Below, in pieces: positions 3,135 through 63,813 of a stretch of 64,000 nucleotides of DNA. Within the stretch, counting starts at the first letter, position 1, and each line of letters opens with the position of its first letter. The notes under the pieces are model-generated. The model searched no databases. It worked only from the letters and a program-made list of their open reading frames with translations, and was not told where the DNA came from. The DNA comes from Styela clava (lineage: Eukaryota > Chordata > Ascidiacea > Stolidobranchia > Styelidae): assembly GCF_964204865.1 (NCBI RefSeq), contig NC_135251.1, positions 29,984,943 through 30,048,942 of the forward strand, written 5' to 3'. Made by a program: the position numbers and the translations under genes.

Positions 3135-4005
3135 ATGGGAGAAAAAGCGGTGAAAGTTAGCAAGTACCTGCTAATTGCCTTTAATTGTTTATTCTTGGTA
3201 AGATCACTTTTGCTATTATAGAAAAGACATTAGTTATTGAAAACCCATCCCACACGGGAAATAAAAAGTGGCATAAACTAAATAATTTGGAGTATTGCCA
3301 ATATTCATAGATCAATATTTTCGCTGAAATGTTGTCTCGTATGGTCTTTTATGTAGGTGGCGTTCCTACGATTAAAACAATCTGCAATTACCGAAAACGT
3401 ATATAAGTCAAAATTTTCGATATCGTAATATAAGAATATATATCAGAAAAAAATGGGAACAACATATTATGTATTGAACACAGTTTTCAAATCCATGGTC
3501 TGTTGTATCACTCAATAGCCCAAATATGCGAGTAAAAACAGAGGCGAAGACTTACGAGTAGATTTTGAACTATAGATGGACTTTTAGTTTTACTACCCTC
3601 TTTGGATTCATAAAAAAATTTCCACCAATATCCTTTTACAGCTTGCAGGCTTAGGATTGCTGGGAGGTGGCATCTGGATTGTAACTGCCTTTTCAAGTTT
3701 CAACGACACGTTTTCACAATTCCTTGACGTGGAATCGTTGATGTACGACTGGATCGGTTATGTGGCAATTGGATTTGGAGCATTTGTCGCTTTAGTAGCA
3801 TTTCTGGGATGTTGTGGTGCCATTTGTGAAAACAAATGTATGCTTGGATCGGTATGTTAATTGTTAACACTTCTTTGCTATTAAAACGTTTTGTATACTA
3901 TGACAAAATAAAAAACAGCACACAGAAAACGTTATGCAAAGATTTTTACAAAGTACCACAGTGGTGGATCGTAACTCGTAAGTAATGTGTTTCCGAACAA
4001 CAAAA

Positions 4006-4036
<31 letters not shown>

Positions 4037-13768: not shown

Positions 13769-16050
<2,282 letters not shown>

Positions 16051-18299: not shown

Positions 18300-18315
18300 A
18301 AGTAACTGAGGAACA

Positions 18316-30816: not shown

Positions 30817-33934
<3,118 letters not shown>

Positions 33935-36100: not shown

Positions 36101-36166
36101 ATCACCCTTCACGAATAGAATGAAGCCATCATCAAAACATAAAATATATATTTTTAATAAACCAAC

Positions 36167-38889
36167 TCATCTAATATGCAATTTTTGAACATGTTCACGA
36201 AAAATCAGTATTGACAAAACAGTGTCAATAGGCAGGACAACCAAGATCGTGAATAAAATCGAGAAAAGTGCCAATTTGGTGATATTTCCTATACCAGAGG
36301 AAGTCATCTCTTGAGCTATAAAGATTAAACTTACAGAACAACATACTATACCAGCAAACAATATAATTGATACAAAGTGAAAAAATAACTGGCAAGACCT
36401 AGTAGTAACTGGCAAGTGAGTATATAGATATTTGTGTTGTAGTTTCTTCTCCGATTCCTCACCATGACAACAGATATTATCATCAGCAACATTTGGATTC
36501 TCTTTTTTCACATCTAATAAATCATATTTTCCTGACGGGTAAGGCACAGTGCTTTGTGAATATGAAAAAGATGTTTTTATTGGTTCACTTCCAGATTCAT
36601 CGTCTGAAGAAATACTAATACTAGATTTAAGCAAAAATGAAGAGTGAGAGTTAGTTTTATCGCTATCAACTGTTGACAAGCTTGGCTTTTTCATCAAATC
36701 TTTTGAATTTCTATCTCCTTTTCCATGTCTATATGTAGTGATGTCATTTTCAGAGCCATACACAGAATCTTCATCTTGACTTGTGACATTCACAATAATA
36801 TAATCACCATCTGAATCATTTTCTTTCTTAGAACTTGAGATTGCACTAGTGGATGTTTTCTTATTTTCATTGGTTGAATTGTTATGAGAATCATTTGATT
36901 TACTTGTGCTGTTTTCGTAATGATCAGATGATGATATTTTTCTAGTCATCTCCAGAATCTCACAGGATTTTTTCGATATTTTCGACTCAGATTTATTGCT
37001 GCTAGAATTGTCATCATCTGATGAATTATTTGCTGAAGATAATGTGTGATGAGACAAGCTTGAAACTGAAGTTATATCACTAATAGTACTCTTTTCTTTT
37101 ACAGTACCCGTGGAGAGTGTGTCATCATCCACACTGCTTGTGTCATTACTACTACCACCAGATGTAGATGTGGTGGCTAGCACTTCACTCTGTGTGGCAT
37201 CATAGCTTGTATCAGATTTACTTTCATAAACAGTGGATTCCAATGAAGAAGAATCAGCATCATATGAATCTGTTGTCAGCTCAGATATTGTCTCTGAATC
37301 TATTGTGTCGGACGGAACTAGCACAGTCTCAGATAAATTTGAGTCATTCTCAATTTTAAAAAACAGTGGTTTAAACCCGAGCCGAGTACATTCAGTCGCT
37401 AAACCAAATTGTTTCATTTCTTCTGTATTTGTCAAACCTTCAATTTCATCTTGTGGTTCAGCATCCACACCAATAATTTTTATGAAGTTATCAAGACCAC
37501 TAAAGTCAAGCACATCTTTATTAGGATCATCTTCAACTTTCAATACCTGCATATCAGCAATAGCACTCATTTGTTTTTGTACTTCATCAATGTTCGCAAG
37601 GGTGTTTGGTTGGACCTCTACACATGATATATTTTTATATGATGAGCTTCTTTTTTCACCGAGAGACAGTGCTGTGCAGGATGCAATTTGTTTAGCTTCA
37701 AAGGGCTCTAATGGACTTCTTCTAGGAATAGCTGACTCCGACCATCTTCTTGACAAAATTTTATCTGAATTCGTTTTTGAGTAATCATGAACCAAGAACT
37801 CAAATTTTGAAAGCATTGACATTGATGTAGAAGCATTAACTTTATTGCTTGGCAAAAGACCATAAAATGCTTTCAATGGTGTTTGCAACGCTGGAGCAAA
37901 AGAATGCTTAGATTGTTTCAAATCTAGTATGTCATGGATGAAGTACCTTCCAACGCCTTCACTAGAAAGAGGTATCTTTGTAATACGCCAACATACAAAA
38001 AATAAAGATCTTAAAAGCAATGGAATTGGAAGTAAAATAATTGTACCAATCACAGAAATTAGCACATCTCCTCCAATGAATTTACCAATGCTATGGGGTT
38101 CATTTGGGTCTTGCATGCTAACAAATAGCTGTAAGTAAAGAGATGAAAGACATCCACCTACCAATATGAGCATCAGACAAAGGAATCGTTCAAGACGACT
38201 GATAATTGATCCGGGCGGAGGTTTCAACAATGAGAATAAAAGGTTACATCGTAGAAACCTGAAATGGCGACTGTTTAACATGACATGAGTTTCTGATTCT
38301 TCAATTTTTTCTAAGACTAAATTTGCTGGCGTAAGCTGCTGCAGTTGTATAAAATTTTCATCATCATTCATTGATAATAGCTTCGTTACAGAGTATTTAT
38401 GTTTACGATCGTCAAGCTGTTTCACATTTATATTTGTAAGCTTCACTGAATCCTCTGATTTTAATATATCTTTTCCATCAGTTGATTGTACAGCAGAAAC
38501 AGGTCCGATCCAAGACAGCAAGCGAATTCTTTGTATTTCACCGAACTTTTCCTTCTTCATAGAGAAACAGACAATGTTTTTATAATTTTCTCTCATAAGT
38601 TGAGGACAGAAGTCTCTTCTTATCCATATTATTGGACCTTCTGCTTTGGTACCAATTACTTGCAAAAATATTTTACATTTAGCGTTCACAGTTTTTAATG
38701 TTTCGAAACTTATCTGATAAAAGGTGTAACCCTTGTTCTTCGAGGGGTTCGGAGGAGTGAATATCATAGTTCTTCTTGTGTAATTTCGGTCAAGCAAATA
38801 TAAAATAGGGCTCATTAGACACAACAGTGCAACAAAAATGATCATTAAATGAAGACCAGATGTTATATCAACAGGATATATCCATTCCC
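36167..38889 (-). other. Polycystin-1-type membrane region of the large gene (TM1-TM5)
   Basis: Coordinates follow the 971-codon last exon. TM1 is residues 77-97 (LHLMIIFVALLCLMSPILYLL). A divergent PLAT/LH2 domain spans about 118-260, beginning GYTFYQISFETLKTVNAKCK. The polycystin signature LLFSLLKPPPGSIISRLERF leads into TM2 (299-322). TM3 is about 338-365, with LLPIPLLLRSLFF like the family FPINLL motif. Residues 366-890 form a cytoplasmic loop rich in Ser, Asp, Thr and Asn. TM4 is about 897-922 and TM5 about 935-961 with VVLPIDTVLSILIF, then REHVQKLHIR and stop. In full polycystin-1 the next part would be the TOP domain and TM6-11. Confidence 0.88.
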
Positions 38890-41800
38890 ACTCTACTTCA
38901 GAAGCAAAAAATCCAATTTCTCTGACGACAGGAACAAAACCATCGTTCAATGAGCGTAAAATAATATGCATCCATAATATTTCTTCTGATATTTCATTAA
39001 AAACAAAAGCATTGGCAATAGAACTATAGTTGAGATGAAATTTTGTGTCGACAGAACCAGATGTTCCTTCATCACCATACACCTGAAATCAGTTCATGTT
39101 ATATGGGCTGCTAAAATTTAAAATCCAATAACAAAATTTTTTTGAGAAACCAATTAGGAAATAATGATTGTACTGGGCTCACTATTTTATAATTTGGACA
39201 AGCAGATTCATATCAGATAATGTGAAGTGCTATGGAGTAAAAATAAATTTTAAACATAAACATTCTTTCAATATTTTGGCATAAAAAAAGAAATACTCTT
39301 TTAGAGCAACATCAAACAAACTGAAATACTTTTATTTTAACTGCAATATTGCAGCGTATTTTACATGGAAAAATTTACATGGAAAGTTATATTCGCAATG
39401 AACATCTTTATTTTATAGCTACCTTGAATGGCCCAATTTCTTTTACTTCCTTATCTTCACTCGCAAATATAATTGAAAAATTTGAAACATCCGAAATGGA
39501 GTCATCGGCACACATTATCATCATCCCAAGGACCGCTCTGGGTCGACCAAGATATATATCTATGATCCATTCATTTTCCAAAGAAAAAGCATTTTTGGAA
39601 CCAACCCAAAATGTTAAAGGATTTGCATCCCACATGAATCTAAAGACAAATCAAAAAATGTATGAAAATTCACTCAAAATCAGACTTTTAATAATAAACC
39701 TGAGCATAACATATGACAACTTAATGTAAGGTTATGATGAAAATTTGACTGGAATCACATATGAGGCCAGTTGTCACACAGTAATCAGTAGTTTATTTTA
39801 TCACCATACGTGAAATACACAAAATGAATAGATAATGTAAAAAAGCAAAAACGGTAATTCGGGTGAAAGGAATCGCGAGAAACCAATACTGGTTATCGAG
39901 CGGCATCACCTGTGATAAAATCTAACAGTAATTGAAATACAATGAAGAAGTCAAACAATGATTGAGAAAATATAAGAAGCAATCGAGAAGACCTGAAAAT
40001 CCATGAGACGCCCGATACACAGAAAAACAAAAAACCTCCAAGCACATATGTGCGAGTAACTAGGGGAACGACAGCAAGAATGCAGTGCGAAAACAGAATA
40101 CCAATATCACAGTGTTAGTGCATTATGGAACTGATAGGTATTTGAACAGGATTTTAAATATATTCCAGGAGGGGAATTACTACGCCGATAGGATGGCCTA
40201 TTCACAGTCAAAAATGTTTGCCAGTGTTCGAATAAGATTGCATAAAGACAACTGCAAGTGCTGGTGTAAGGTGCTTCGGTGACGAAATCGTCATAAATGC
40301 GATATAAATTAGAAGCGTTATAACATTCTACAGCTATATCTTTTAGTCTTGATGTGGTAATTTGTTGAAATAACTTACTTAATATCTCGATGGCTTCTAA
40401 CTGTCAAATTTTTTAATTTCTCCTCAGTGAATATTGCAGAAAGCCCATCAGATATTGTCATCGTGTCGGGTTCAAACTTCAACCATTCTTTATCAAGACG
40501 TTCAGAAAGTTGTTTAACACCAGAACCCTCTTCATTGTCTTTTGATTTTCCTTCAAACGAGTAAAAATAGTAGTTATATCTTGTTATGCTTTATTAAATC
40601 TGGCTCGGCGGTTGGCTTATCATGCTGGGCATAGGCTTGCCATCGCCCATAGGCTTGCCATCACCCCTCGCTTACTCTACATGGGTTTACAGGTTTAAAT
40701 CCTGTGGGGGATAATTATGTGTCCGAACTCTTCACCAATACTGGTTGGTTATGGCTTCTTCCACCATCAAGTCTAAGCATCTGGATGTCTAATCCCTGAC
40801 ATAGACTGGAAACTGGATGAGATTAGCCATAAGATAAAGCCGTCTCATTACCTTTCGCTCCCCTTGGATAAATGTGTAAATCCTGATCATACACCTAATA
40901 TAAATTAAACAGATATACCTTCCTGAAATCTTTCCAGGAAAATAGAATTCTTAAGCAATTAATTTACAACCATATTCTCAATAAAGATCTGTTATGAAGT
41001 CAAAACATTATTTCCTCAATAAATGTCATATTTTTTAAATTTGTCAAGTAAAAATAGATAAATCATATACCATATATATTATTTAAATCTACTACTTAGA
41101 GTATACAAATAATGATATTTAATAAATATTCCAAGTGTTATACCTGCTGTTGTAGGCTGAGCATCATATAATGAAATACATTTGAAATCTGGTTCAGGAA
41201 ACCATTGACCATCATTTTTACATACAATGTTGAATTCTTTTTGACCTGTGTTGATATTAGAATAAAAATAATGTTTAATTCAAGACATGATTATTCAAGG
41301 TAGCAGTAATTTTTGAATAAATTATTCCACTTTTTTGTCAAAAAATTTGAATCAATGGTCGCAATATTTATTAGAAATGAAAAAACAGATTACCAGTTAT
41401 AATCCAATTATCATCTTTCAATCTGGCAATCCATTTCATCGGATGACAAACATAAGTAAACACATTATCAAACCATGGTTTATCTCCGAATATATTTGCT
41501 GAAGCAACTGCTGGTGGGGATGGACAAATTATCCTGAGATAAAGTATAAATTAATCTTAGTTTTCTTGAATATAATACATTGGTCCAATTTCTGTGATTT
41601 CAAAAATATTTTTACGTCGGATAGAATAGGATATACATTATTTAAATTATTCTGACATGCGATGCATTGAAAAATAAATGAAAAAAATAAAGGAAGAATT
41701 TCAACAATATAACATACAATTGAAACAGGTTCCGCAGCAAATGAAAACGTAATGTTACGGCCGAAACAGATGACAGAAAACACAAGAAATGATGCATGCA

Positions 41801-44800
41801 ATATGCCCCTTTTCATGCTGTTTTTATTGTCATGGCCAGGCACGACTATAATCAATTATGATTGTGTTCAAATAAAACTACCCTAACGGCGGCATCAGGG
41901 ATGTGCGCATAAATTGATATTCTTATGAACACCTTAAACGATATTCGAAAGTTATGGTATTCGACTATTTGATTTGAGCATCCCTGCAATGAAACACAAA
42001 TATTCACATCCAAATAGTACATTTTCACTTTTTTTTCAGTTTCAATGCGATTTTTGTGAGTTGAGTTAAGTGTGTACTTTTATTCAGAACTATAGCATTG
42101 AATAGCCTCTTCTATTTAAACAAAAATCCATCCGTTACCAATTAAATCATTCACTAGTGTTTGCTACATTATTACAGGCAATGTCAAATACAAAATATAT
42201 TATTTAGTTCAAAAAGTGTAGTCTCGAGTTTTTCTCGTAATTTTTAATTTTAATGACCTTTCCTGTCTGTTTCATTTGTATTAAATATTTAGATTTTTCC
42301 ACATATGGTTAATACTGGACTGATGTCTAGAAATCTTTCATTTTCAAGAAATTTTTAATATTATTCTAGTTCATCCAAAATTAATTAGCTATCATGCACC
42401 ATGCATCACTAACCAGATTGAAGCAAAAAGGTTACCTAATGCATGAAACAAATGCAAATGGTTCCCAGGAAGCCATTAACGAACAAACTTCTTCAACTTC
42501 ATATGGATTTCCTTTATGTTGAGGACCAAGCCAAAATCCTTTATTGCAAGTATATTTCACGACTGAATTGAAACTTGTGCTGTTTCCTTCTTGAATTGCA
42601 TTCTGAGATTTTGGTGGTGTTGGACAAACAATAATCACACATTTGTATGCCTTCTAAAATTGAAAAAATCATTTAAAATTGATAAATTACATTTTAGAAG
42701 TTGATCACAATATTCAAAAAACTTACATCTGTGAAGTTAGCAGACCATATTCCATCTCTACCACAAGTAGCTGTAGTAGAATGTTTGTTGCTACTAATCC
42801 AATATCCATATTTGCATTGCAGATAAGCTTTACCTCCTATGGAAAATAAAGTACAAATGGTGATCATTATAAAATTTACTTCAATGATGAAAACATTCTT
42901 TTTTACTCGTAATATCTTGACAGGAAATCATGGCTTTATTTTCTCCATACGAATGACTGTCATCTATTATTCACAACCGGTTAAATTGTTTGCAAATTCT
43001 TTATTAATATCAGCTCATATCTAATAGCTAAGCTAACCAATATAACCAATATATTGAACGTTTGTAGTAGTGTAATATAAATGGTCCAATGCTTAAAGTC
43101 AATCTCTAACAAAATCATTCTGCATTAATCTGATCTTCACCGCCAAACCACAAATAAAAAAATTTCGGACATTACCATCACATAATAAATATATTTTGCC
43201 AACACCAATAAGAGAGTGAAAGCAGCCGATTTCCAACCAATTTAAACCCTACCTGAGCATAATGAAAAAACACGCCCAGACATTAGTAAAATTAAGGTAA
43301 CATCTTCTTGACATTATTTACTGACTACGCTTAAAAACAGTAATACACATATTCTGTAACTCCAGATAAAAAAGAATTAAAGAGTATCATCTCATCATTA
43401 CTTCATTAGCATATAATTTTTATGCAATTGATTAATGCTGCTGACTTACCATAATTGAAATCCCCATAGACTGTAGCATTAGGAAGATGATCAGGAGGAT
43501 CACAGGGAATAGGTGAACAAGACAACAAATCAACTGAAGGTTCAAATTTTCCATCCTCGACACAATTGATTTTTGACTTTATTGTTGCTTTATCAGCATC
43601 AACTAATTGATATCCATCATCACAGTATACTTCAATTTCATCTCCATATTCAATATTTTTAGACTTGAAAAAAACGAGATTAACAAAATTTGAGACAAAA
43701 TTTTTTTTCTAGTTATCAGGACAACATGACATAATGCTTTTCTGGAACGGAAATTTGAAATAAAACAAATTTTCCATATTGATAAATATGAGACTTGCTT
43801 CCGCATATTCTGTTTTTGTTCACGTAAAGTGTTTGTATAATTTGAGAAAAATATGATTTACGACTCAAATTATTTATCAGTTGGGACTAAAAAAGACTAG
43901 CTTCCTTACCTTCCTCTATGTCTCTGCGCTCTTGGATTTGTATGCGTATAATGCAAGAATGGAGTAAAGGAATAAAGATGACTATATTATGTAATTCAAT
44001 AGCTTTGGTGGATAAAAATAATTTACATACCGGTAGTTATCCTGGGAAAGTGGAAAACTGAGCCAGTTTTTTGTTTTCGGAAGCATGGACTTCATGGCGG
44101 AGGAAGCTGTCCACCAAAGGTTACGTGAACCACCCTACGCAATGAGGAGTCCAGCAATCTTCTTACACATAACCATCCTGCATGGGATTCCAATCTACGA
44201 ACCCACGCAGAGTAATCAGAGATGCGGTGGCAAGCGTATTCCTAACACTTAGCATGATGGGATTTCCTTGTGTGATTCTATTTTATTCCGCTGTTTTATT
44301 CACATTCCTTAAACTAGAATAGTTATGAAACTGTATGCTATCTGGGATATTAATGAATCACTAAACAATAAAACAATGTCATGTCTGATATTGGATTTGT
44401 AAAATTAACATGATTAGTTAGCAGACTACTAAACTCAAATAAACTTTGTTGCTTTACATTTTTAAAATGAAGGTTTGCATATTGTGGAAGCTGGCATGTA
44501 GATTTCACACAATGATGATTTTGTACATTCGGATCCCACTTTCCGTCAGGACCACAGGTATATTTGTATTCTGTCATTCCTCTCTCAAACCAATACCCTG
44601 AGTGACATCTGTCGAGGAAATTTTAGTTGTTGTTTACTTGAAAAGATACAAAAGACAAATAATTCATTACAGATTTATCTGCGGTAATACCATATTTCTT
44701 AGTGGTTATCAATTATGAACATCATGAACTCTCTATACTACGTGCATTATATTTAAATATATAGAAATGGTTGTAAAATATGCAAAACCAATAGAATGAA

Positions 44801-47800
44801 TACATATTATTATTTCCCGATCGAAATTAAAAAATTCTGGACGATAGGTCCCAAATATTACCAGTGAGCTAATTATTAATGAAGAACAAGCTATCTTGCC
44901 TATTATAAAATTTTGCAAACAAGAACAAGCGACTGCATAACACACAGTTCTAGTTTTGTAATTGAACTTTTATGAATACCTGTAAGATGCAGAATCATAG
45001 ATATCGAGTCCTGTTTTTGAATAAAGATCTGCATGTGGCATCATATATTCATCGCATGTTGTATTAGTACAATTTAACGTCAAAGGATCTGGTATAAATA
45101 CACCTTCAGGTCCACATCTAGACTGTAACAGAAATACATCTTCAGATAATGAATCATGTTTCATGGAAAAATCTCACTAAATCAACAAGATTTCGAAAAG
45201 TACTTTCGAATAGTTTTGATATGCACATTTTTTTTGAATGATTTTGGTTAGGACAAAAAGTAAACATATGGAATAATAAGTGAATATACAATAAATTTTG
45301 TAGTTAACACAGGTTCAAATAGGTTGCAGAGATAAATACCTCATGGTGTACATCTACTTTTTTGCTGTCATGATTTTGAGATATTATCATTTTAATAATT
45401 TACACATTGGAACTATAGATGTGATGGTGCAATGTTGGACTTGATTATATTGACCTTGTAGGCTTGAGTTCTTCACTTTGACACCCATGCCAACTTTAGG
45501 TGCATTGAATTGAATAGGCCAGTGGTTCTTAAACTTTTTCGAGCGCGACCCAAATCTGAGTTTTATGAATACTCGCGACCCAACCCAAACGCAAAATGTG
45601 TTTTTAATGTTCGCACAGTTTGACTCAAATACAAACAACTATTTATTAGAAACAGTCCATTGACTCAGTGAGATTGATGAAGCTGAAATTTCCTTTTCAT
45701 TATATCTTCAATACACAGCTCTATTTTACATAACGCAATACGCAAGTTGTCACGGGTATCGAGGCGATTGCGAGCTTAGTTTTAATAACCGTCAGTGCCA
45801 AATATCCTCGCTCGCACAAGTGCCTTGTCGCGAATTGTAGCAGAAAAAGCGTCCGCTGTCCGTCGCAAACACGACATCCTAGCTGGCCTTTTTTACTCAT
45901 CAAATGTGCACACACTGCTTCGTTCGCGGTAAATGGTGCCTCGAGATGAAGTCACATTTTTTCTAGATATTGAATAATCTAATGTCGAGAAGCGAGCTTT
46001 TTCATTGCGTCGTCTATTACAATTTACATTACCAAATAGACACCCATTTTTGGTTATTTTAATCCACTAAGACGACATTCCACGCGTTCAACACAATGAC
46101 AAGCGACGTGCATGGTTACCGATACCATAAAAATAATACACGTGACTGGCATATCAGAATTGTGATGTAACAATGAGCTCAAGACAGTATTTCCGTGAAT
46201 GAAATTTTATATTTCATTATTTTTAAATACCAGAGTTTAGAAGCTAAATTGAAACATTGGGAAAGCTGAAAATTCGTCCTTCTCCTCTTAGATTGCCCTT
46301 GCATTGACGACCTTGTCGCGACCCATTTTTAAACCTTCCGCGACCCATGTTTGGGTCGCGACCCATACTTTAAGAACCACTGGAATAGGCATTGCGGACT
46401 GGTAAAATTTTCAGTCCTTCTATAAATTGTTGCTTTTGATGTATTAGTGGCTGAGTGTTTGAAACTTTGTTCAACATGATGTTAAGTCATGTATAAAATA
46501 TTCACATCACATATTCACATATAAACACACATAAGCAATAATGAAAACTGAAGGTTAATAAAAATAATACAGTATCTTGAAAAAAACATTTTTGTATAAC
46601 AGCTTTCATTGAGTAAATTACAAATTGAAATATTATAAGGTTTTTACCTCAACTTGATGTTCTTTCAAATGAGCAACAAACATTTCTTCAGGACAATCAT
46701 ATCGAACCGTGGTGTTGAACCAATATTGTTTACTGGCAAGTTCTCCATGTATTGTTATATTTTCAACCTGTGATAGTAGAAAAAGTTATTCTCATAATTT
46801 ATGAAACACTTGTTGAAAAAGGACAGTAATAGATTCAGAAGTTTTCTGGATGACTGAAAATTCATAGCATAATATATCTGTTGATATTGTTCCATCATTA
46901 TTGTGTAAAGATCAAGGAAATCCAACAAATATAGGCAGTGTTTCCATCAGACCAAAACCAAAAACCTAGATATAAGACTAAGATAATCCTCTATCCATTT
47001 TCTCAAATTTGGTATGAGTTGAAGGTGTGTAGTCTTATAGAATCATGCTAGGCATATGAGCAGAATGCCTGCTAAGGTCATATTATGAACGTTTTGATCA
47101 TCGTTAGGCATTTGGTCACTAATGTAATTTAGACAAATAGATTCAAATTTAAACATGAAATGTTATGTTACTCAATACGCACTTTTACAAGTAGAGGTAC
47201 CCATTCACACCTGACCTTAACTTCATGATGCAGAATCTGATTGAACATTCTGACATTATAAAATACCTAAAATGACAAAAACTGCTGAAATAAAGCACCT
47301 TGGGTGGAGGATCACAAGTCACTGTTGTACATTTGATCAGATTTGCAGGATTTGGATTCCATTCTCTATCATCAGTGCAAGTTGTTGTTTTTTCATATAT
47401 TTTATCAGGCATTCCCCAGAATCCTTCCATACATTGATATGTCAACTTTGAATTAACCTTTAAATCATATTCTGTTCCAGTGAACAATTCTGTAGCAAGG
47501 AGAAGATATAAAAATCATAAATGATTCTGATTGAGAACTAGGTCATTGCTTATAAAATACAGAATGAATATTAAGGAAAGATCAATAATTTCAAATACAG
47601 TGCAGGAGACTTCAAAACAAACCAATTACCACAGGACTGGAAGAAATTTTCATGAATCATTCAATTTGAATTCCTTTTCATTAGCTGTTTGGGCATCCGA
47701 GGACAATAAAATTAAGATAAGATATATTTAAATTCGGTCTATTTGTCAGCTGCTAACTTACAATAGCAGCACAAATAAAACTGAAAACAAAAACAATCAA

Positions 47801-53800: not shown

Positions 53801-54614
53801 AACCATCAGTATTACAGGAAGCTTGATGGAAAAATGAAAAAAAAAATCATTACTGCTATCTAAGATGATGCATGGCAATTGTTTATAAATGGGTAAGCAT
53901 ATATCAATAAGTCTATGAGTAATATTTGCAGGATTGAATTAAAGGAAATGCTGCATCAAGTTACTGCTATAATATCAATAATTGGTGATTTATATTCTAA
54001 ACTGGAAATCTAACAATCAACATGGAACTTTATCGACTTTTGATAACAATCATGATATTTGTTAATAATGATTTTCCAATGCTACGAATCGAGTATTAAT
54101 TCAAAACATATATTTTGAGTTACATTTAAAATAATTCAATCTATTTACCAGTAATTAATAACTTGATGTCAGTTTCTCACCATTTGCTGAATTTTGTTGT
54201 TGTCCATCGACGCTAAGAATATATCCACCATGACACAAATAACTTGCCGTTGCTCCATATTGTGTATCATTATATTTTACTTCGCCATAGGGAATTTGCA
54301 ATGGCTCAGAGCAACCAACCATAACGCAAACATATTGTGAAGGATCAGGACGCCATAAGGCACTGTTTATGCAAGTAATTGTCAACTTTTTATATATTCC
54401 TGGGCTGTTGAAATTAAAGCCATCATTGCATTGGTAAGATGCCTAAAAATAATAGAAAATTAAAAGAAGACAATAAAACAATTTCACCACATGGGAGAAC
54501 ACAACCTTTCAATAGCTTAACATTCCAGGTAAGGCTCGTTTTTTTGAAATGCAATTGTTATTGTGTTTATATAAATGTATTATGTGATATTGTGTCTATA
54601 TAATGTGATGTTTT

Positions 54615-54647
<33 letters not shown>

Positions 54648-57600
54648 CATTCCAGGTAAGGCATGTAAATTGCTATCCAGTTAAAAGTTTCAGTGCAAGT
54701 CAGAAAATGTTGGAAGCGCAGCACCATTCTGTTGAGGAAAGTTCAGTGATCCATTTTCACATATTAAATAAACCCAGACTTCAGGCCTGCAAATTCTGGA
54801 CAGTGTAGTATGTTAAATAACAGCAGTGTGTTTACAATAAGTCGGACAATGACTCATTCGATGTAGAATATAAAATTTTTAAATTATGCCACATCCAATC
54901 AAATACTAACTTTTCTACCTTACTATTGAAAGCCAAGTTATTATAGTTGAGTTCCGCATTCGATATTGCAGGGGGTGGAGTACAAACAATAGGTTTGCAA
55001 ATCAACGTTTCTGTATCTGGTTTCCATTGTCCATCCAACATACATTTGATAGTAACTTCTGAAGTGCCGTTTGTTACTTCGTAACCAGCCTGGCATCTCA
55101 CTATCAATTCACTTCCAATACTGTAAGAGTCTCCTAAATATTACATATTGAAATTTGAGGCAAATATGAATAAGCATGGTTTAAAGGTTATATGATAACA
55201 CAACTTGTTGGGATCTTAAAATATCATTAACTTAAAAATATTCAAGCTGAAGATCATGAAAAAGCTTCAATTATATTCGACATGGGCAAACTACGGCCCG
55301 CGGGCTAAATCCGGCCCATTGAGTAATTCAATTTGGCCCGCCTGATGCTGACACAACCAAACTGAAACCAAATTTTGATGTTTTAGCTAAAAAACTCCCA
55401 AGGAATTTGTTGAGATTGCGATTAAATTCATTTCATGGCACGAGGCTTATTATTTTGTAACACTGCAAATATTGTTTATGAAATGTAACTTTTACGTCAC
55501 CCTTACGTGGACGGCCAGTCTAGGTGGGCAACATTTTTGGCCCCTGGTTTAAAAACTGTGTCCACCCCTGATCTATATGATATGCTAAATTGTTTGTGGG
55601 GCATTTATCAATATGTAGGAAAAGAAGTATGAGATGTTAGTGGTATTTTATCAAGATCAATGTCCAAGTGCAGATATTCTCAAACTTTTCAAACTCACGA
55701 CACATTCATTTTTTGTATTACAACAAACCATAGAACATTCGAAAAAACGGACTGAACATTAAATTGCGGCACAGAAACTTTTTCGAATATACATTTATTT
55801 ATTGTGGTTCAAGAGCTCCCCCAAAATGACTCAATCCATTGATTAATTAAGCCTTTTTTTGAAAATCAAGGAAATCAGGAAAGTTTCTTTTATACAAAAA
55901 CTACATTCAGTATGTGCAATGAATCAGTAGTATGCTTCAAATTTTTAAAAGAAAGTAAAGATACGTGTAGAACCAATATTTATTCTGTTATTATTATTTT
56001 TTATATACTTAACTGGACTTACCAATCAAGTCTGTTTTATCAACTTCTTTCGGTAAACCACAATAAATTGTTTCATTAGAGACACATTTAATTTGTGTGT
56101 AATCTGGTTTCCATTCTCCAAAATCTAAATCATGGTACAAAATAAAGTGATCAGCGTAAACTAATAGTGGCTGACTTACACATGCCATTTAATGAGTATG
56201 TATAAACATGTGTGAAGATTTTCAAAAGGAAAAAGATAATTCGAAATGGTAGTTTCAAACTATTAGTGACATAAAAGGATCAAGTCGAGTTAGCTTTTCC
56301 CAACCAGACAAAATACATTTTACTGAGGGAGGGAATCTGCAGGAAACTAAAGCTAGTTTAAAACCCAGGGTACAGACATCTATTTAAAAATGAACTATTG
56401 TTGTTATTTTCGAGTTTTTGTATGGTTTTGGCAAATTATCCAACTAAATTTGCTACAGACAGATCTTTATTATAGAATATATTGGGAGCCATCAGGCCCA
56501 CACATTGACGGGGTACTCACCACTCCCCAAAACCAGTTGATAAAACTCTTCAAAAATTGAAATCTGTGAGCAATGAAGTCCGGCAGTAAGGAATTCAACG
56601 AATTGGTAGTTGAAACTTCAAGATAGTGCACCTCAGTTTAGATAAAACAAAAACTATACCAGAACAAGTTAAATTAACTGAATCCTGTTCAAGTGTGATT
56701 GCATACTCTTCTTCGCAGTACAAAGTCACATTGGAATCGCGAGGATAAGTCGTCTCATTTTGACTTTTATCGACAAATAAATGTTCGGGAAGTTTTATTG
56801 GCAGGTCACAATCAGCAGGCACAAAAGTTAATAATGCATCAAGTAAATTGTTGACTCGTACTGATGATGCGTTTGAACTAATATATCTGAATAAAACAAT
56901 AACATCAATAATATAAATGAAAGAATTACAAATAAATATGTTGGCAATATTCAGGGTTTGCACGAGTTCATGTAAACCTGTTTTTAGAACGTTGTGATAA
57001 TCAATGAACCATTTTCGTTTTATTAGATCAAACGTTGAACAAATGAGTATTGTGCACCGAATATGACGACTATATTGGTTTCGAAAGTTATGTATTAGAT
57101 TTATGTTAAGTATGTCATGTTAATGTAGCTTCCATAGTGACGTCCATAATACATTTGACGAACCAGTACTAAGTTTGCCATGGTTTTCTGAAGTGAGGGA
57201 ACCTGTTGTTAGTGAGTTCAATACAAATTTTGTATCCCATCACTGGATAAATAGATGATCGAAATAATCATAACAGATCAAGAAAAAGACCACGATAACC
57301 CGTTACTGAAGTTATGACTAATTTAAGCAACTGATTGCATTTGGCATGTAGCGCCAACATCAAATGCTAAAAATTTTAATAATATTGCAAAATAATTGCA
57401 TTTTTGTATTGTTTTGAAATCGTAATTGTAATTTCGTAAAACATCCATGATAAGATATTCATTTTATATAAAAAAATATTCTTCACTAGAATTTGATTAC
57501 AGATTTACAAATTGTTTACTTAAAAATAGAATCTCAAGTATAGTGCTACGTTGGGTTGAAATAAATATTTATTTAGGGTTTTTATTCAAGACAAAATGAA

Positions 57601-60600
57601 AATACAAAAATACCTTTTCTTTCTTGATAATGTTGAGTTTGGGTCAGAATAACTTGTATTGGGTTCAGTAAAATTTATGTTTTGATCAAAGTAGGTCATG
57701 TTAAGATCAATAAAATCTGCAACTGGAGATTGGTGGGTTACAGCAGGTTCTGGTTCATCAACTGTATCCTTTTCTTTAATCCATTTTCCACCGGATGAAC
57801 AAATTAAAACTACAATCGTTTTCTTTGATAGTGCAGATCTATATCCGGGTAAAGCATGATAAATGATGCGATGTCCAACACCAAACCCAGTCACGTTTTT
57901 AACAGAATTATTTCTCATTCCTGGATCAGGACAAGCAAGAGGTACGCAACTTGGTGGATTATCATAAAGATCAACTGGAGTCCATCGACCTGTAAAACCA
58001 TAAATAAGTTATCATATTGAAATACAACCCATCAATTTGAAATTGAAACTACCGTAAAAAATTAATTTTTTTAATAAAGACTTGAAGTTGGGAGAAGATA
58101 TTTATAGATGCCGCATAAGCTCAAGAAGTGATGTGTCGATATATATATAAATTTTTAAAATATATTCAAGGTATTTATCACTTTTAAAGGCTACTTCAAT
58201 AATAAAAATCAAATTTGAACAAGAATGTTCAGCACACAACACACATTGGTGAATGATCAGCTCATGCAATATGAAAAAAAGGATAATATCAGCAGCCTAT
58301 CTTCCCAGTAAGCTAACAGAGCAAATTAAAATGGGCATCCTCACCTAAAAAAGTATGACAAATTCTTTCACTTCCAAATAAATAAGCAAATCTACATAAT
58401 TAATTAATAAAACAAACCTGTGTTGGAACACTGAAATTGAGAAGATCTAGTACTGGTTACTGATAGAACAAATCCTTCTTTACATATTATAGAAATATAA
58501 GCTGATACAGGAAATTCACTTGGTTCTGACAAAGAATAAGATTTTCAATTACAAAAAGTTTAAATATGATACATTAATAAAGGAGAAAATGTTAAATGAC
58601 AATTCAAGATGAAACCATTAAAGATAAATTGTGTAACTACATAAAGAAGTGGGTCCAATAATAGTTGTTCAATACAGCAAAACCTTTCTCCAATAGCAAG
58701 CAACAGACACACTCAATGAATACCAGATTCCAATTCTTTTTTATATAATGCCCAAACAAGTCCCAGTACAAGAGAGCCGGCACTAATATGTAAGTAGCTA
58801 TTTTGAAGAAAATTTTCCCTTTATAGCACTACCTACCCAATTTATTACAACTCGGGTGAGACGGTGGGTATTAGATTCAAACCAGATATGTGTAACCTGT
58901 GATGTCAATACAGTAACATCTAACGCTTCAACTGCTAAGCTATGGCGCTTGGGATATGAATTAATACAAGACATATCGTATTAAATATGATAGAATATTA
59001 AATTTCAATATAATATTCACTACATATGCTTGACATCATGTCTATATCAAAGAAGACATTTTATAATACAACTTAATATGTACTGTATAGGTCGGGTAAT
59101 GACATTTTTTGTACAAGGATAATAGGATAGAACAAACTAAAGATGAAAATGACAGTTCGAAAATTTTGCATAAATAAAAACTTTATTGCGAATAGAAGAG
59201 GCACCTGAAATGCATTCCCTCACTAATATATGGCATGTTCTAACCAAACATCTGAACATCAAGTTTAGGATTTACCTGGATTGATATCGGTTAGTAGAAC
59301 TGCATCAGATATGATACCAGGATGTATACAATGTATTATTTCACATACAAATGAATCTGTATCAACTGTCCAACTTCCATCTTCAGAGCATTCAATCAAT
59401 ATTTCTTGTTCACCCCTGAAGTTAAAAAAATTTTCAAATAAAAAAGTTAAAAGTTCTTGGTGTTTTCATTTTCATTTAAATAAAACAACTGTTTTCATAA
59501 AAGCAAAATCTCAAATCAGATTATAAAATCAAATTAATATTGAAATACATTCACTGAAATTCGTCAAATTGGGACATGAACAGAAATATTCATTAAGTGA
59601 TAATCAACTATTTTGAATATATACTGAAATAACATGTACAAGTTTGATTTTTAGCAGAATCATAATATAATGAATATCACATTTTCAATTCATATTTGGC
59701 ATCTATAGGCATAAATAGCAAACAAATGCAGTTTACTTCAAGCTTAAATGAAATTGAAAACTTTGATTTGATTTACAACATTTGACCTTAAAACCTTGAC
59801 TGACTTTAAAATAAAATAAGTGTACTATAGTTTTGGGTTACATTGCTCAGTATATACGAATCCTATGCATTGTATTTAAAACAAGTAGCAATAGCAGTTA
59901 CCGTGCGGATTTTTCTATTCCAACAAGCCAGTATTTATCAGGACACGACAATGATATCTGATCATTATAGTAATATGATGAATTATATCTTCGATTTGTA
60001 TTGATCTCTATCATAGTATTTATATCAGGAGCATCACATTGTATTGGTTCGCAAACTAATGACTGAGGGTCTGGAATCCATAATCCTAGTTTTCCACATT
60101 GTATATTAGCATTTAATTCATTAGTTTCAAGAAATTTGTATCCAATATTGCAAAAATATGTTGCAATGTCTTCATACTTTGTGCCATCGACAACTAATGC
60201 GGTATTTTCAATCAAACCTGAAAAAAAAGAAGAAACTGGTCAAAATGTTCTCCTAATTACTGGTTCAAACATATACAACAAATTGAAATGTGAAATAGAG
60301 TTTTTAAGATTTTCATGTCTGTGCTTGCAAGTCAAGCTTTCACTTGTAAACTTGTTAATACTGAAATCTTGAAAAAAATTCTATTTGAACATATTGCAAA
60401 ATAACAATAGATTTTAAAGCTGATCATTTCACAAATTTCATACCTCAATTAGTTTTCATAAAAAATTTCATAAAAGAGTTAATAATACCGCTTTATTACT
60501 GGTTCAAAGGCAAATATCAAATTTTGTCCCGCCATTTAACTCAATATATTTGGGATACAAATGCAAAAGATGAAATAATAAAAAATGTCATTCCAACCAG

Positions 60601-63600
60601 GTTTAGATATATATTAGTTGTAAAATGCAAAATCTATACAAACAATGTAAAAGGATAAATATTTAAATTTGGGTTTTTTAATAAAATTTGGCTTCTTGTT
60701 GCAATAGGTTCAAAAAAATAATGCCTACTAAATCTATTCATAGTGTGAAGCAATATTCAATAAAAAGTTACAGTGGAAGTTACATTTTTCTTCTTTTCAC
60801 AAAAGGGCGTTTCCAAGTTTAGGCCCTTTAAGTTAAAGACTCGACTCGCAGAGACGGATACACAAATTACATAGAAGTTTCACAAATATTAATGTAAAAA
60901 TCGTTCTATATTTTTTAAATATTCTTTATAAAACTTTACCTGGGTGGGGACAAGATGATATATTGCAGGTAATATCAGTCATATCTGGATACCAATACGA
61001 TTCATAAACTCTTTTTATATTTTCACGATCAGTTTCTACTTCATTTCGGACAACAGGAACTGTTGCATTCAATTTACAAGTCACATCTAACATAAAATCA
61101 TCAGAACCTCTAAGAGTAGATCCATGTGGACATACATAGTACACATGATCATCAATATGATATTGAATTCTTGAATCTAACAAACGCAAGTTTGCCACAA
61201 CAGGAGGAGGATGACATATAGCTACAATGCAGTGAAATAATCCAAGTTCAGATTCATCTCCGGGAACCCATTCTCCTTGTAAATCACATTTGAATTTGAT
61301 TTCAGTTGTTCTGGCATCGATTTGATATCCAGATTTACATCTCATTGTGACTTCATCCCCTGCAGTAAACTTTTCTTTATATTTCTGGAATTGAAATTAT
61401 TTTTTCACAAGGAGAGGGAAATTAATAAGGAAGTCTAACATCTTTGATATAAGAACATGAGGCAATGTTTATGTTTGTGGGAATGCTTAGATAAATATGT
61501 ATCTATCACTATCTATTATATATGCTACATCAGAAGGTAACTTGATAGGATTCTTCAACACTCCAAATTAAAAAGGAATGCGTAGAGAGGAAAGTTGATA
61601 AGATGGTTTAGTCATGTGGTGAACCACAGCCTCTCTCCTGGTTACCAGTCCATGTTGGGTACAGAGGAATAGTTAAGTAGGTTTTTGTTCCAGATGCATG
61701 GACTTGATGGCGAAAGTCGAACTTAAGCAGAGTAATCAGCACTATGGTGTCAAAGGTTTTTCAAACGCTTAGCACAATGCGCAAAACGACGAGATGCGAC
61801 TCCTTCCATCAATTTTTGAAATATGCTGTTGATTGTTTCGCATTATTATTGAACCTATTTCATATATCGATACCATTACAAGCTGCTATGTATATGTCGA
61901 TTGAAAACTAAAGTTGATACAAACCTTGGTTTCATTGTAAAAATAGGCATGTGTCATCTGAGGTAAAAGACCGCATTCCACTCGGTCACATCTTATGGAG
62001 AAAGGTGGAGGAAACCATCGACCATCTCCCATACATTTGACCCTTCGTTCTGATAACTTGTTTCCAATTTTAAAACCTTCATTGCATTGATATAAGACCT
62101 AAGATAATACAACTGTGATTGAGTCTAAGGGTCTAATAAGAATATTCCACATTGCAAGAGATTTCTGAAACAAAATATAGCAAAAAATTCCTCTATCAAA
62201 GAAACTCTTGAATCCTGATAACTCCCTGTTAAATCTGATGTTAAGTCTTGAAGGAAAACTTACTTCTTCATGTACAGAATAATTTTCTCCAACTTTGATG
62301 CCGTCAACAACTGTACCAGGATCACCACAAGAAACTGGGACACATTTAAGTTGAGCAGGGTCAGGATGCCATAAACCTGTCTCATTACAACGAATCTCAG
62401 AATAAGTTCGAGATACTGTAAACCAAAATCCCTAAAAAACATTGAGGTCATTAAACAACAATGAACTGATCTGAACCGTTATTTGGTTAACTGGAAAAGT
62501 AATTACAGGTAAACAAAAACAATGTTGGAGTACTGGCAATGATTTCAGATATTATTCCGCTCACTAAAAAGGTTTTAATATTTACAGATATATCAAGACA
62601 AGACTTGACTTATAATAGACAAATGTTACTGTTAACAATAAACTGATAAGGAATTCTGAAATATCAGAAAAATAAACAATCCTAATGATATCAGCAAAAT
62701 TGTATCGCATTTACTACTGTTGAAATGTACAACAGTGAATTTGATATGAAACTTTGAAAAGAGCTTTTCTGATATTTGCCACTGATAAAAAACTTTTGTC
62801 ACAATGTTCACCAGTCCACACATTCATTATGTTCAAATCCACAGATTGTCAGGAAATTCGTTATGACAGTGCTTTTAATTCAGTGATTCAAAAACTTTAA
62901 AATCATAGTATGATATACTGTATACATATAAAACAAACAAAGAGAAATTTTAAAAGGGTTTATGACAATACTTACCATATCACACTGATACTGCACAATA
63001 CTATTGTATCCAAACAACTTCAATTCATCATTCGTCCCATTATAAACCAGTGATCGAGTACTGTTAACATTTTTCGATGAATTTGTATTGATGTCACCAG
63101 TATTATTGAGATTGGTGGCATTAATTGGTGATGTTTCGTTTACTTGATCCATTACTAATACTGTGTCACTAACACGCGCACTATTTGCGATCTGACCAGG
63201 ATCATGACAATGTAAAGGTACACAAGATAATGCATCATGAATATTTGGCAAACTCCAGGAACCATTCCAGAGACATTGAGATTTGAGAATATTACTCCCA
63301 TCCATGTCACTAAAATGGTAAAAAAAATATGCTTTTTGAATCTTGTTCAAAAATGAAGTGAAAGAACAACATTTCAAGTTTTAAGGCTTGCAAAATTTCA
63401 ACAAATTCGTTCAGGATGAGCTTCCTATTACACAAAAATGAACAATAGACGAAACAAAATATTTACATTAATAATAAAAAGTATCATTAAAATCTGATAG
63501 CATATGTTCCTGTGTAAAATTTTGCTCTATGAATAAAGCACCACAAACTACCGTAGTATTCATCAGTTTGGGTACCCGGACTTCACTAGTAGCTAGCAAC

Positions 63601-63813
63601 ATCATCTTATGATCAAAATAGCTACCTTTGTATAAATTGATTTCTATCTGTTTCATCTGAAAGAGAATCACGTTCAATCCAAAATCCAGGCAGGCAGACT
63701 AATTTGATATGGTCAGAATACATTGGAATGTATGATACATTCAATTTATATCCAAAAACAATGTCACCTCTGTATGGTGGAATAGAACTTGGAGTTTCCA
63801 GCATTTGCATTAC
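36167..63813 (-). CDS. Sushi-rich, discoidin-bearing polycystin-1-like membrane protein (5' end beyond window)
   Basis: Thirty exons on the minus strand. From the right: 63626-63813, 62976-63309, 62264-62431, 61925-62098, 60940-61384, 59902-60217, 59276-59415, 58418-58525, 57614-57989, 56660-56886, 56023-56124, 54919-55133, 54181-54442, 53670-53821, 52891-53048, 52270-52392, 51614-51753, 49873-50007, 47299-47489, 46648-46767, 44980-45122, 44458-44606, 43450-43663, 42727-42836, 42437-42653, 41394-41533, 41144-41245, 40379-40550, 39423-39639, 36167-39082. Every junction is GT-AG with matching phase and the total is 8454 nt (2817 codons plus TGA). Order: about 23 sushi modules, discoidin-like domain, TM1, PLAT, TM2-TM3, long Ser/Asp-rich loop, TM4-TM5, stop. 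I infer a cell-surface protein with adhesion- or ligand-binding-type ectodomain joined to the polycystin-1 membrane half. It lacks the TRP-like TM6-11. Function is unknown. Introns hold hATs and SINEs. Confidence 0.88.
38890..40550 (-). other. Discoidin-like (F5/8 type C) domain exons of the large gene
   Basis: Encoded by 40379-40550, 39423-39639 and the first 64 codons of the last exon. Matches to the fold pattern: LSDGLSAIFTEE early, FMWDANPLTFWVGS, NEWIIDIYLGRPRAVLGMMI (WxxxDLG-like strand), SNFSIIFASED, then NAFVFNEISEEILWMHIILR and REIGFFASE near the end (the usual ARYVRI and RVELYG positions). The domain sits directly before TM1. Such domains usually bind lipids or glycans. The identification is by pattern and is moderately divergent. 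Confidence 0.7.
40600..40895 (+). mobile_element. tRNA-derived SINE, family A, intronic
   Basis: The head GGCTCGGCGGTTGGCTTATC and the box-B-like ACAGGTTTAAATCCTGTG are followed by the TTATGTGTCCGA body and a tail GGATAAATGTGTAAATCCTG. It lies in the intron between exons 41144-41245 and 40379-40550 of the polycystin-like gene, in antisense orientation to it. Confidence 0.75.
41896..41986. mobile_element. Possible 91-bp hAT-terminus mini-element
   Basis: The CAGGGATG termini face each other, with interior TCGAAAG/TCGAATA-like strings also seen at 23967-24000. The flanks show no 8-bp duplication, so it may be a decayed or internally deleted copy. Confidence 0.4.
44068..44262 (-). mobile_element. 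tRNA-derived SINE, family A, intronic
   Basis: Contains the family order in inverse: AAGCATGGACTT, GGTTACGTGAACCACC, GAGGAGTCCAGCAATC, CATGGGATTCCAATCTACGA (box-B region) and GCGTATTCCTAACACTTAGC (box-A region). It lies between exons 44458-44606 and 43450-43663 in the same direction as the gene. Confidence 0.78.
45520..46382. mobile_element. hAT element with transposase relic, 863 bp, perfect TSD
   Basis: The left end is CAGTGGTTCTTAAA and the right end is its inverse; subterminal GCGACCC motifs lie near both ends. The TSD GAATAGGC is exact (45512-45519, 46383-46390). A minus-strand frame at 45721-45915 reads HLCERGYLALTVIKTK, resembling the C-terminal hAT transposase pattern (E-x-GFSAL-x-x-IKTK) found in ZBED5/FAM200-like proteins. 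Frames are broken, so it is non-autonomous now. It is inserted in the intron between exons 46648-46767 and 44980-45122 of the polycystin-like gene. Confidence 0.93.
47490..49872. other. Longest repeat-poor intron of the large gene
   Basis: A 2.38-kb intron between exons 49873-50007 and 47299-47489. I found no sushi-like exon, nested gene or recognisable mobile element in it. Confidence 0.55.
50173..51254. mobile_element. hAT-like element, 1082 bp, intronic
   Basis: The left terminus is CAGTAGTTCCCAACC and the right terminus is the inverse of CAGTGGTTCCCAACC. The flanking octamers TTCTACTT and TTCTATGT match at 6 of 8 positions, consistent with an older TSD. It lies between exons 51614-51753 and 49873-50007. 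No intact transposase recognised. Confidence 0.85.
52488..52636 (+). mobile_element. tRNA-derived SINE, family A, intronic fragment
   Basis: CATGCTAAGTGTTAGGA, then GCAGGTTCTAATCCTATAGG (box B), then GAATTGCTAGACTCCTCG and GGGTGGTTCAAATTC follow the family order. It sits just upstream of exon 52270-52392, in antisense orientation to the gene. Confidence 0.72.
54536..54645 (+). mobile_element. Short retroposed insertion with poly(A) tail and 17-bp TSD
   Basis: A 17-bp sequence AACATTCCAGGTAAGGC occurs at 54519-54535 and again at 54646-54662, flanking about 110 bp that ends in a run of nearly 30 A. A long TSD plus 3' poly(A) is the mark of target-primed (L1-type) retrotransposition. The short body matches no gene or LINE that I recognise, so it may be a 5'-truncated LINE or a piece of an mRNA 3' end. 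Confidence 0.8.
55277..55570. mobile_element. hAT-like MITE, 294 bp, intronic
   Basis: The left end TCGACATGGGCAAACTACGG followed by CCCGCGGGC resembles the common CAGGGGTGGGCAAAC hAT end; the right end is the inverse of CAGGGGTGGACAC. Flanking octamers AATTATAT and ATCTATAT match at 6 of 8. It lies in the intron between exons 56023-56124 and 54919-55133. Confidence 0.72.
58775..58957 (-). mobile_element. tRNA-derived SINE, family B
   Basis: On the minus strand it begins near 58950 with AGCGCCATAGCTTAGCAGTT (box-A region), has CTGGTTTGAATCTAATACCC (box B), then GAGTTGTAATAAATTGGGTA. Its wording after box B differs from family A, so it is a second lineage. It lies in the intron between exons 59276-59415 and 58418-58525. 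Confidence 0.72.
61590..61795 (-). mobile_element. tRNA-derived SINE, family A, internally deleted
   Basis: It retains GATGCATGGACTTGATGGCG, AGCAGAGTAATCAGC and CAAACGCTTAGCACAATGCGC in family order on the minus strand, but the central part including box B is missing. Located between exons 61925-62098 and 60940-61384. Confidence 0.65.

What the first reader, a model, noticed from the sequence alone, without database searches (positions are those of the whole stretch)
36167..63813. Polycystin-1-like protein with a giant sushi array and a discoidin domain
Seen directly: 30 minus-strand exons join in one frame with matching phases (8454 nt). They run from about 23 CCP modules through a discoidin-like domain into the polycystin-1 membrane region (TM1, PLAT, the LLKPPPGSxxSRLER signature, TM2-TM5). 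Known polycystin-1 ectodomains use combinations of PKD, REJ, WSC, LRR, C-type lectin, GAIN/GPS and similar domains. I know of no described member made of a long complement-type sushi array plus F5/8C, with no GAIN/GPS visible. It could be a surface recognition or adhesion receptor built on a polycystin base.
Basis: partly seen in the sequence, partly recalled or inferred. Interest (0 to 1): 0.88.

Follow-up and report, generated by a model that had tools for sequence, protein, structure and literature searches.

The report
Giant sushi receptor on polycystin-like base
An unidentified animal carries a very large gene predicted to make a cell-surface receptor that joins dozens of sushi and other binding modules to a shortened polycystin-1-like membrane part without an ion channel, a combination not described in the papers searched here.

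Summary
The exon chain is real: 30 minus-strand exons (63813-36167) join in one open frame (2837 codons plus stop), phases match, and every exon is coding-like only in its own frame. The sushi array is real: 23 modules, one degenerate.

The polycystin call is partly supported. The TM2-TM3 block matches human polycystin-1, a PKD1L3-type sequence and a polycystin-1 gene of the same genome beyond shuffled controls. PLAT has moderate, mixed support; TM4-TM5 rest on topology. The frame stops after TM5 and no channel was detected in the window. No GPS/GAIN or REJ was found, so a family-defining feature is not met. The discoidin domain is unsupported.

The window cuts the gene short. Upstream sequence completes the first sushi module and carries a provisional coding chain to about 97 kb (window numbering) with thrombospondin-1, kringle, weak lectin-like and further sushi modules. 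So 'sushi plus F5/8C' is not the ectodomain.

Best reading: a channel-less 5-TM polycystin-1-type receptor with a rebuilt adhesive ectodomain, acting through partners such as the polycystin-2 encoded in this genome. Nearest described plan: Ciona s-Themis-A (5 TM, with REJ and GPS). No transcript was available; the species is unknown.

The parts
41144..63813 (-). Exons 1-27: tail of sushi module 1 through module 23 (23 CCP/sushi modules; module 9 degenerate). Module 1 is completed by an exon upstream of the window
   Evidence: gene model; Pfam Sushi E 7.4e-93, 16 stretches; segmentation and own HMM, 23 of 23 modules score, 18 of them seeds; coding test
57614..57624 (-). Dibasic RKKR motif (furin-like; that name is recalled) at the end of exon 9, its last base in exon 10 (56886); the only R-x-K/R-R in the modelled window protein
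40379..40550 (-). Exon 28: first bridging exon after the last sushi module
   Evidence: phases match; coding-like only in its own frame; splice scores within the range of the other exons
39423..39639 (-).
   Evidence: no Pfam, PDB-sequence or discoidin-profile support
36167..39082 (-). Exon 30: rest of the juxtamembrane domain, TM1, PLAT-like region, TM2, TM3, long serine-rich loop, TM4, TM5, stop
38792..38848 (-). TM1 (residues 1945-1963)
   Evidence: hydropathy 2.71
38516..38731 (-). PLAT-like region in the first intracellular loop
   Evidence: hhalign to a PC1+PKD1L3-type+31 LOXHD1 PLAT profile: score 22.1, 0 of 100 shuffles reach it; no Pfam PLAT match; other tests negative
38000..38242 (-). 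TM2-TM3 block with the LLKPPPGSxxSRLER signature, homologous to polycystin-1 family TM2-TM3
   Evidence: z 7.0-9.6, 0 of 1000 shuffles; same-genome PC1, z 4.2-8.7, 0-1 of 1000; top of 1589 frames, E 2.1e-4
36461..37720 (-). Serine-rich TM3-TM4 loop (83 Ser in 420 residues)
36203..36373 (-). TM4 (36373-36317) and TM5 (36259-36203), followed by the stop
   Evidence: hydropathy 2.75 and 2.61; sequence similarity to PC1 TM4-5 not significant
36153..36169 (-). Stop codon TGA (36169-36167) and an ATTAAA polyadenylation-like signal (36158-36153)
   Evidence: read directly

Best explanation
This is one large animal gene, transcribed on the minus strand, for a polycystin-1-type receptor whose usual ectodomain (REJ, GAIN/GPS) has been replaced by many adhesive modules (23 sushi in the window, plus kringle, thrombospondin-1, further sushi and lectin-like modules upstream) and which keeps only the first five membrane spans, without the channel. 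Proposed mechanism: the ectodomain binds a glycan or protein on another surface or in the matrix. Without GPS self-cleavage, force or ligand state passes through the Cys-poor juxtamembrane domain to TM1 and the cytosolic PLAT-like loop, and the signal goes out through a partner in trans (for example polycystin-2, which this genome encodes) and/or through the long serine-rich cytosolic loop. Shown here: exon chain, sushi array, TM2-TM3 homology, five hydrophobic spans and the stop, no channel detected in the window, a PKD2-type gene in the genome. Inferred: the single transcript, surface location, ligand binding, partnership with PC2 and loss of cleavage.
For: Phased open chain of 30 exons with coding signal in 30 of 30. 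The sushi module cut by the window edge is completed by the upstream exon 64509-64241; 40 of 40 upstream chain exons of 100 nt or more are best in their own frame, a result to which the chain's own scoring contributes. TM2-TM3 homology: 0 of 1000 shuffles at three shuffle windows against a recalled PKD1L3-type sequence; exon 30 is the top of 1589 window frames for a PC1+PKD1L3-type profile at E 2.1e-4, the next being 0.093, and for the same-genome PC1 TM2-TM3, 89 against 60. PLAT profile, 0 of 100 shuffles. Topology TM1 / ~200 aa / TM2-TM3 / long loop / TM4-TM5. A PC1 channel profile finds nothing in the window better than E 0.089, an intron frame; the PF08016 search lists 7 places genome-wide, none on contig C2. 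PKD2-type protein L032 with PKD_channel E 3e-81. 5-TM precedent s-Themis-A.
Against: No transcript. Pfam, NCBIfam and PDB phmmer give no polycystin or PLAT match (the list was capped at 60 chance matches). PLAT and TM4-TM5 are not significant against the same-genome relative, nor PLAT against human PC1, nor either by PC1-only profiles. The AF2 model without alignment is unusable (mean pLDDT 38.5). No relative of the membrane part was found at E<=1 in two protein-database searches, although that database holds animal proteins. GPS, a family-defining feature, is not met. Function is entirely inferred.
Confidence: 0.62

Rival explanations
1. Two neighbouring genes: a secreted sushi/lectin giant ending near exon 27, and a separate small 5-TM polycystin-like gene using exons 28-30. 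The chain only looks joined.
For: No RNA evidence; intron 27 is 593 nt; the PC1-type part is so far confined to exon 30; the automatic chain puts two doubtful small exons between exons 27 and 28.
Against: Exons 27, 28, 29 and 30 are phase-compatible with ordinary splice scores. In the reading frame no ATG precedes the middle of exon 28, so a separate gene would lack a signal peptide unless an unseen first exon exists (read). The splice/codon chain runs through.
Confidence: 0.12
2. The last exon is an unrelated five-span membrane protein; the polycystin resemblance is a chance match of a proline-rich motif next to hydrophobic segments.
For: No Pfam, NCBIfam or PDB sequence match; PLAT and TM4-TM5 pairwise tests against the same-genome relative fail.
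Against: TM2-TM3 beats local shuffles that keep the hydropathy pattern against three relatives (0-7 of 1000, 0, 0-1; the three are related to each other) and ranks first of 1589 frames in scans of the whole window.
Confidence: 0.12
3. The protein does end in a polycystin channel, encoded by undetected exons downstream of 36167, and the stop is bypassed by splicing within exon 30.
For: In PMC1934368 9 of 15 PC1-type proteins (5 human, 4 sea urchin) have 11 spans (passages). Divergent channels can be missed: the PF08016 search did not list the C10 polycystin-1-type gene either.
Against: No channel segment found in six frames of the window (best E 0.089, an intron frame) and no PKD_channel place listed on contig C2. 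An ATTAAA signal follows the stop, and an opposite-strand zinc-finger exon lies at 31839-32162.
Confidence: 0.06

Closest known systems
Ciona s-Themis-A (sperm polycystin-1-like self-sterility receptor; PMC7018956, PMC9265791, passages)
   Same: Polycystin-1-like, five membrane spans, no C-terminal channel
   Different: s-Themis-A has a hypervariable region, REJ, GPS and LH2/PLAT; here no REJ or GPS found, a divergent PLAT-like loop, and a sushi/kringle/TSP1/lectin-like ectodomain. Nothing here shows that this animal is an ascidian or that the gene acts in fertilisation
Human polycystin-1 / PKD1L3
   Same: TM2-TM3 block, TM1 followed by a PLAT-like loop, long TM3-TM4 cytosolic loop
   Different: No GAIN/GPS, REJ or PKD repeats found by Pfam, no polycystin domain and channel found, sushi-rich ectodomain
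Sea urchin REJ family (SpREJ1-10; PMC1934368, passages)
   Same: PC1-type proteins; some have C-type lectins; number of predicted spans varies (0 to 11)
   Different: Six of the ten were sought by REJ domain and all but SpREJ10 are reported with a GPS; the word 'sushi' does not occur in that text
Ciona vCRL1 (variable sushi-domain protein, PMC9265791, passage)
   Same: Sushi-domain protein of an invertebrate
   Different: No polycystin membrane part is mentioned in the passage seen; recalled as a complement-receptor-like protein
Chlamydomonas PKD2-mastigoneme (MST1) complex (PMC10846610, passage)
   Same: Sushi-containing extracellular structure coupled to a polycystin
   Different: Separate proteins, polycystin-2 type, alga; only an analogy for how force could be passed on

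Membership tests
Polycystin-1 (PKD1) family | GPS motif / GAIN domain before TM1 (called a defining feature in PMC9672506, passage) | tested here: not met
   No Pfam match in the window protein; one Cys in residues 1738-1933; no H-[LIVM]-[ST] in residues 1701-1945
Polycystin-1 (PKD1) family | TM2-TM3 block following PLAT | tested here: met
Polycystin-1 (PKD1) family | PLAT/LH2 domain immediately after TM1 | tested here: inconclusive
   Profile-profile 0 of 100 shuffles, but hmmsearch with the same profile ranks exon 30 second at E 0.069, Pfam none, pairwise not significant, PC1-only profile not significant
Polycystin-1 (PKD1) family | 11 membrane spans with polycystin domain and channel (not in all members) | tested here: not met
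   Five hydrophobic spans; no channel found in the window or listed on contig C2
Polycystin-1 (PKD1) family | REJ domain (absent in human PKD1L3) | tested here: not met
   No Pfam REJ in the window protein or in the five upstream pieces; the genome-wide REJ search did not complete
s-Themis-A type | Five spans, HVR, REJ, GPS, LH2 | tested here: not met
   Five spans met; GPS and REJ not found; HVR not testable without alleles
Sushi/CCP array protein | Tandem modules of about 60 residues with four cysteines and a tryptophan | tested here: met
F5/8 type C (discoidin) | F5/8C domain between array and TM1 | tested here: not met
   Pfam none at E<=10, PDB none at E<=10, hhalign to six recalled discoidin domains: 48 of 100 shuffles reach the score
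Polycystin-2 partnership | Complex with PC2 | not testable with these tools
   A PKD2-type gene exists in the genome (L032)

The most novel reading that the evidence does not exclude
A polycystin-1-type receptor that has lost both the GAIN/GPS switch and the channel and has gained an ectodomain of roughly 5,000 residues (provisional chain) with about 30 sushi modules and kringle, thrombospondin-1 and lectin-like modules, so that a complement-like recognition surface works a polycystin-2-type channel in trans without self-cleavage.
Probability: 0.35. Interest if true: 0.78.

Novelty: new variant of a known kind. Interest (0 to 1): 0.58.

Why it matters
If one transcript carries all of this, the polycystin-1 membrane part can be driven by an unrelated, complement-like ectodomain and without GPS self-cleavage or a channel of its own. 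That would separate the parts of polycystin-1 that are needed for signalling from those that are not, and would give a natural test of whether GPS cleavage is essential. It would also be a large new recognition receptor of an animal.

Tried and rejected
Rejected: discoidin domain (no support). Channel downstream. A close paralogue of exon 30 in the genome: only itself at E<=0.001, 9 candidates scored. RNA genes in the window: none at Rfam gathering scores or by ARAGORN.

Led nowhere: two protein-database searches with the gene's own membrane part gave no relative at E<=1. AlphaFold2 without an alignment gave mean pLDDT 38.5; no fold search was run on it. NCBIfam none. An alignment-based AF2 model with polycystin-1 sequences was not run because it would have been circular. 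The species could not be named: the COX1 search, meant to read the mitochondrial code, did not complete. A term search in PMC5318412 gave no passage.

Results against the reading: with the PLAT profile exon 30 was second (E 0.069), behind an unrelated minus-strand frame at 4695-4501 (E 0.024). With the TM4-TM5 profile exon 30 was not among the six best frames shown. PLAT scores were reached by 58 to 73 of 100 shuffles against the PC1-only profile and 224 to 275 of 1000 against the same-genome PLAT; TM4-TM5 scores by 83 to 572 of 1000. The C10 polycystin-1-type gene showed no TM2-TM3 match above the noise. The splice/codon chain recovers 26 of 30 exons exactly, moves a border of three, splits exon 30, adds six doubtful small exons in the window and carries two internal stops at doubtful joins; its scoring was trained on the same 30 exons. 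Rows dropped: the PLAT-TM3 profile used the typed human sequence and 11 of the 21 hits (three LOXHD1-type hits and seven not spanning the region were left out); the channel profile used 5 of 8 tried.

Full report
What is there. The stretch 63813-36167 on the minus strand holds 30 exons that join in one frame: 2837 codons and a stop, 8514 nt. Every border is GT/AG and every phase matches. In a leave-one-out codon comparison against the gene's own introns, 30 of 30 exons score above zero in their own frame and below zero in both others; only for exon 8 do any stop-free intron windows of the same length reach its score, 4 of 245. For exons 2, 5, 6, 9 and 30 there were no such windows to compare. 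Exons 28 and 29, which bridge the sushi array and the membrane part, behave like the rest, and their splice scores lie within the range of the others.

The sushi array. Pfam Sushi matches with E 7.4e-93 and 16 stretches. Cutting by hand at the first cysteine of each module gives 23 modules. Of these, 21 have four cysteines, module 1 is cut by the window edge, and module 9 has two and carries the only dibasic R-x-K/R-R motif of the modelled protein. An HMM from 18 of the modules finds all 23; the five that were not seeds score E 7.9e-5 to 2.5e-17 among the 24 sequences searched.

The membrane part. Exon 30 has five hydrophobic spans, at residues 1945-1963, about 2163-2187, 2205-2223, 2770-2788 and 2808-2826, and the protein ends at 2837. 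Pfam, NCBIfam and PDB sequence searches find no polycystin or PLAT in it (the list was capped at 60 chance matches). Direct comparison does better. The TM2-TM3 block scores 94 against a PKD1L3-type sequence (recalled; itself a polycystin-1 relative at E 1.5e-34), with 0 of 1000 shuffles reaching that at each of three shuffle windows, z 7.0 to 9.6. Against human polycystin-1 (recalled, confirmed by PDB 6a70 except at its start), z is 3.4 to 6.9 and 0 to 7 of 1000 shuffles reach the score. A profile of the human sequence and 11 of the 21 hits plus the PKD1L3-type sequence, run over 1589 open frames of 25 codons or more of the window, puts exon 30 first at E 2.1e-4, the next frame at 0.093. The polycystin-1-type gene at C4:620-640 kb of the same genome, which has PLAT, TM2-TM3, TM4-TM5 and channel exons, gives 89 for exon 30 against 60 for the next window frame, z 4.2 to 8.7, 0 to 1 of 1000 shuffles. 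A second same-genome gene near C4:14.097 Mb carries the same signature; the block scores 66 on it, 51 on the next frame of that locus, without a shuffle test. The gene on C10 shows no such match.

PLAT and TM4-TM5. The loop after TM1 aligns over 66 columns to a PLAT profile built from polycystin-1, the PKD1L3-type sequence and 31 LOXHD1 domains, score 22.1 against a shuffle maximum of 16.5 (0 of 100). But a polycystin-1-only profile and pairwise tests show nothing, and in a scan of the window with the same PLAT profile exon 30 is second at E 0.069. TM4-TM5 is not significant; one search gave 0 to 129 of 1000 by method. So PLAT is likely but not shown, and TM4-TM5 rest on order and spacing.

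What is missing. No GPS or GAIN: one cysteine in residues 1738-1933 and no H-[LIVM]-[ST] in residues 1701-1945, no Pfam match. No REJ. No channel segment found in the window; the best frame has E 0.089 and lies in an intron. Of 7 PKD_channel places listed for the genome none lies on contig C2; that search scores only the best candidates and did not list the C10 gene. An ATTAAA signal follows the stop. The discoidin domain is unsupported (48 of 100 shuffles reach the score); exons 28-30 encode a Cys-poor juxtamembrane domain of unknown fold.

Beyond the window. The window is G000:C2:29984943-30048942 of a 376.6 Mb assembly in 379 contigs. I took 60 kb upstream. The exon at 64509-64241 completes sushi module 1. 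A splice-and-codon chain runs from about 97.1 kb to 36167 in 93 predicted exons. Of these, 56 lie upstream; all 40 of those of 100 nt or more are best in their own frame, which the chain's scoring favours, and no upstream intron exceeds 1267 nt. The chain was trained on the 30 exons, contains doubtful small exons and two internal stops at doubtful joins, and is not a finished model. Pfam on five hand-cut upstream pieces (2705 residues) finds thrombospondin-1 (E 4.6e-12, two stretches), kringle (E 9.5e-10 and 2.3e-14) and sushi (E 2.1e-35, five stretches, and E 3.2e-6). Ricin-type lectin (22.6 bits of 29 needed) and C-type lectin (21.2 of 22.6) stay below their cut-offs. An ASF1-like gene (recognised by eye) lies on the other strand at about 108 kb, so the gene probably begins between about 96 and 108 kb.

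How it may work. Binding through the long ectodomain, transmission without GPS cleavage through the juxtamembrane domain to TM1 and the PLAT-like loop, and output through a partner channel or the serine-rich loop. A PKD2-type protein with PKD_channel E 3e-81 is encoded in the genome. This is inference from polycystin-1 biology: PLAT of polycystin-1 binds phosphatidylserine, PI4P and beta-arrestin (PMC9672506, passages).

What is known. Ciona s-Themis-A is a five-span polycystin-1-like receptor without the channel but with HVR, REJ, GPS and LH2 (PMC7018956 and PMC9265791, passages). Of sea urchin SpREJ and human PKD1 proteins, 9 of 15 have 11 spans, some SpREJ have C-type lectins, and all but SpREJ10 are reported with a GPS (PMC1934368, passages). 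Ten paper searches (nine listed in full, one search listed 20 of 58) and passages seen in nine papers showed no polycystin-1-type protein with a sushi array. They cover only open-licence papers, and most hits were seen as listings. Two protein-database searches with the membrane part found no relative at E<=1; they only see proteins sharing exact five-residue words and of similar length.

Verdict. A real and unusual gene. The polycystin-1 link is supported at TM2-TM3 and is plausible elsewhere. Because GPS is tested and not met, I do not file it as a full member of the polycystin-1 family but as a polycystin-1-type variant.

Noticed in passing
window 18310-19779 (+): Fe-hydrogenase-like protein in one open frame (Fe_hyd_lg_C E 9.5e-60), CIAO3/NARFL type by eye.
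   Followed up: partly
window about 20889-23760 (+): ALG6/ALG8 glucosyltransferase exons; one of them, 21494-21949, tested (Alg6_Alg8 E 5e-44).
   Followed up: partly
window 31839-33934 (+): C2H2 zinc-finger exon resembling ZNF367 (by eye) and a 219-aa frame without a Pfam match.
   Followed up: partly
window 3588-4767 (+) and 14162-15180 (-): Tetraspanin exon (3588-3857) and an adenylate/UMP-CMP kinase-like exon (14926-15180), both by Pfam.
   Followed up: partly
window introns, for example 44240-44070, 40860-40640, 12935-12657: Stretches that look like copies of a SINE-like repeat by eye; a 401-base piece from intron 27 had no second copy in the window by blastn at E 1e-3.
   Followed up: partly
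G000:C10:14.860-14.880 Mb (L026, L027): Another polycystin-1-type gene: PLAT exons (E 1.8e-18 to the PC1 profile) and a 777-aa multi-span frame with no Pfam match.
   Followed up: partly
G000:C4:14.096-14.100 Mb (L006, L033): Polycystin-1-type gene with PLAT, the TM2-TM3 signature and a 989-aa frame holding the channel.
   Followed up: partly
G000:C1:11031781 (L032): PKD2-type protein in one uninterrupted 838-aa frame; together with other long frames this hints at intron-poor genes in this genome.
   Followed up: no
G000:C19:17.51-17.55 Mb: Cluster of PLAT exons, LOXHD1-like by number.
   Followed up: no
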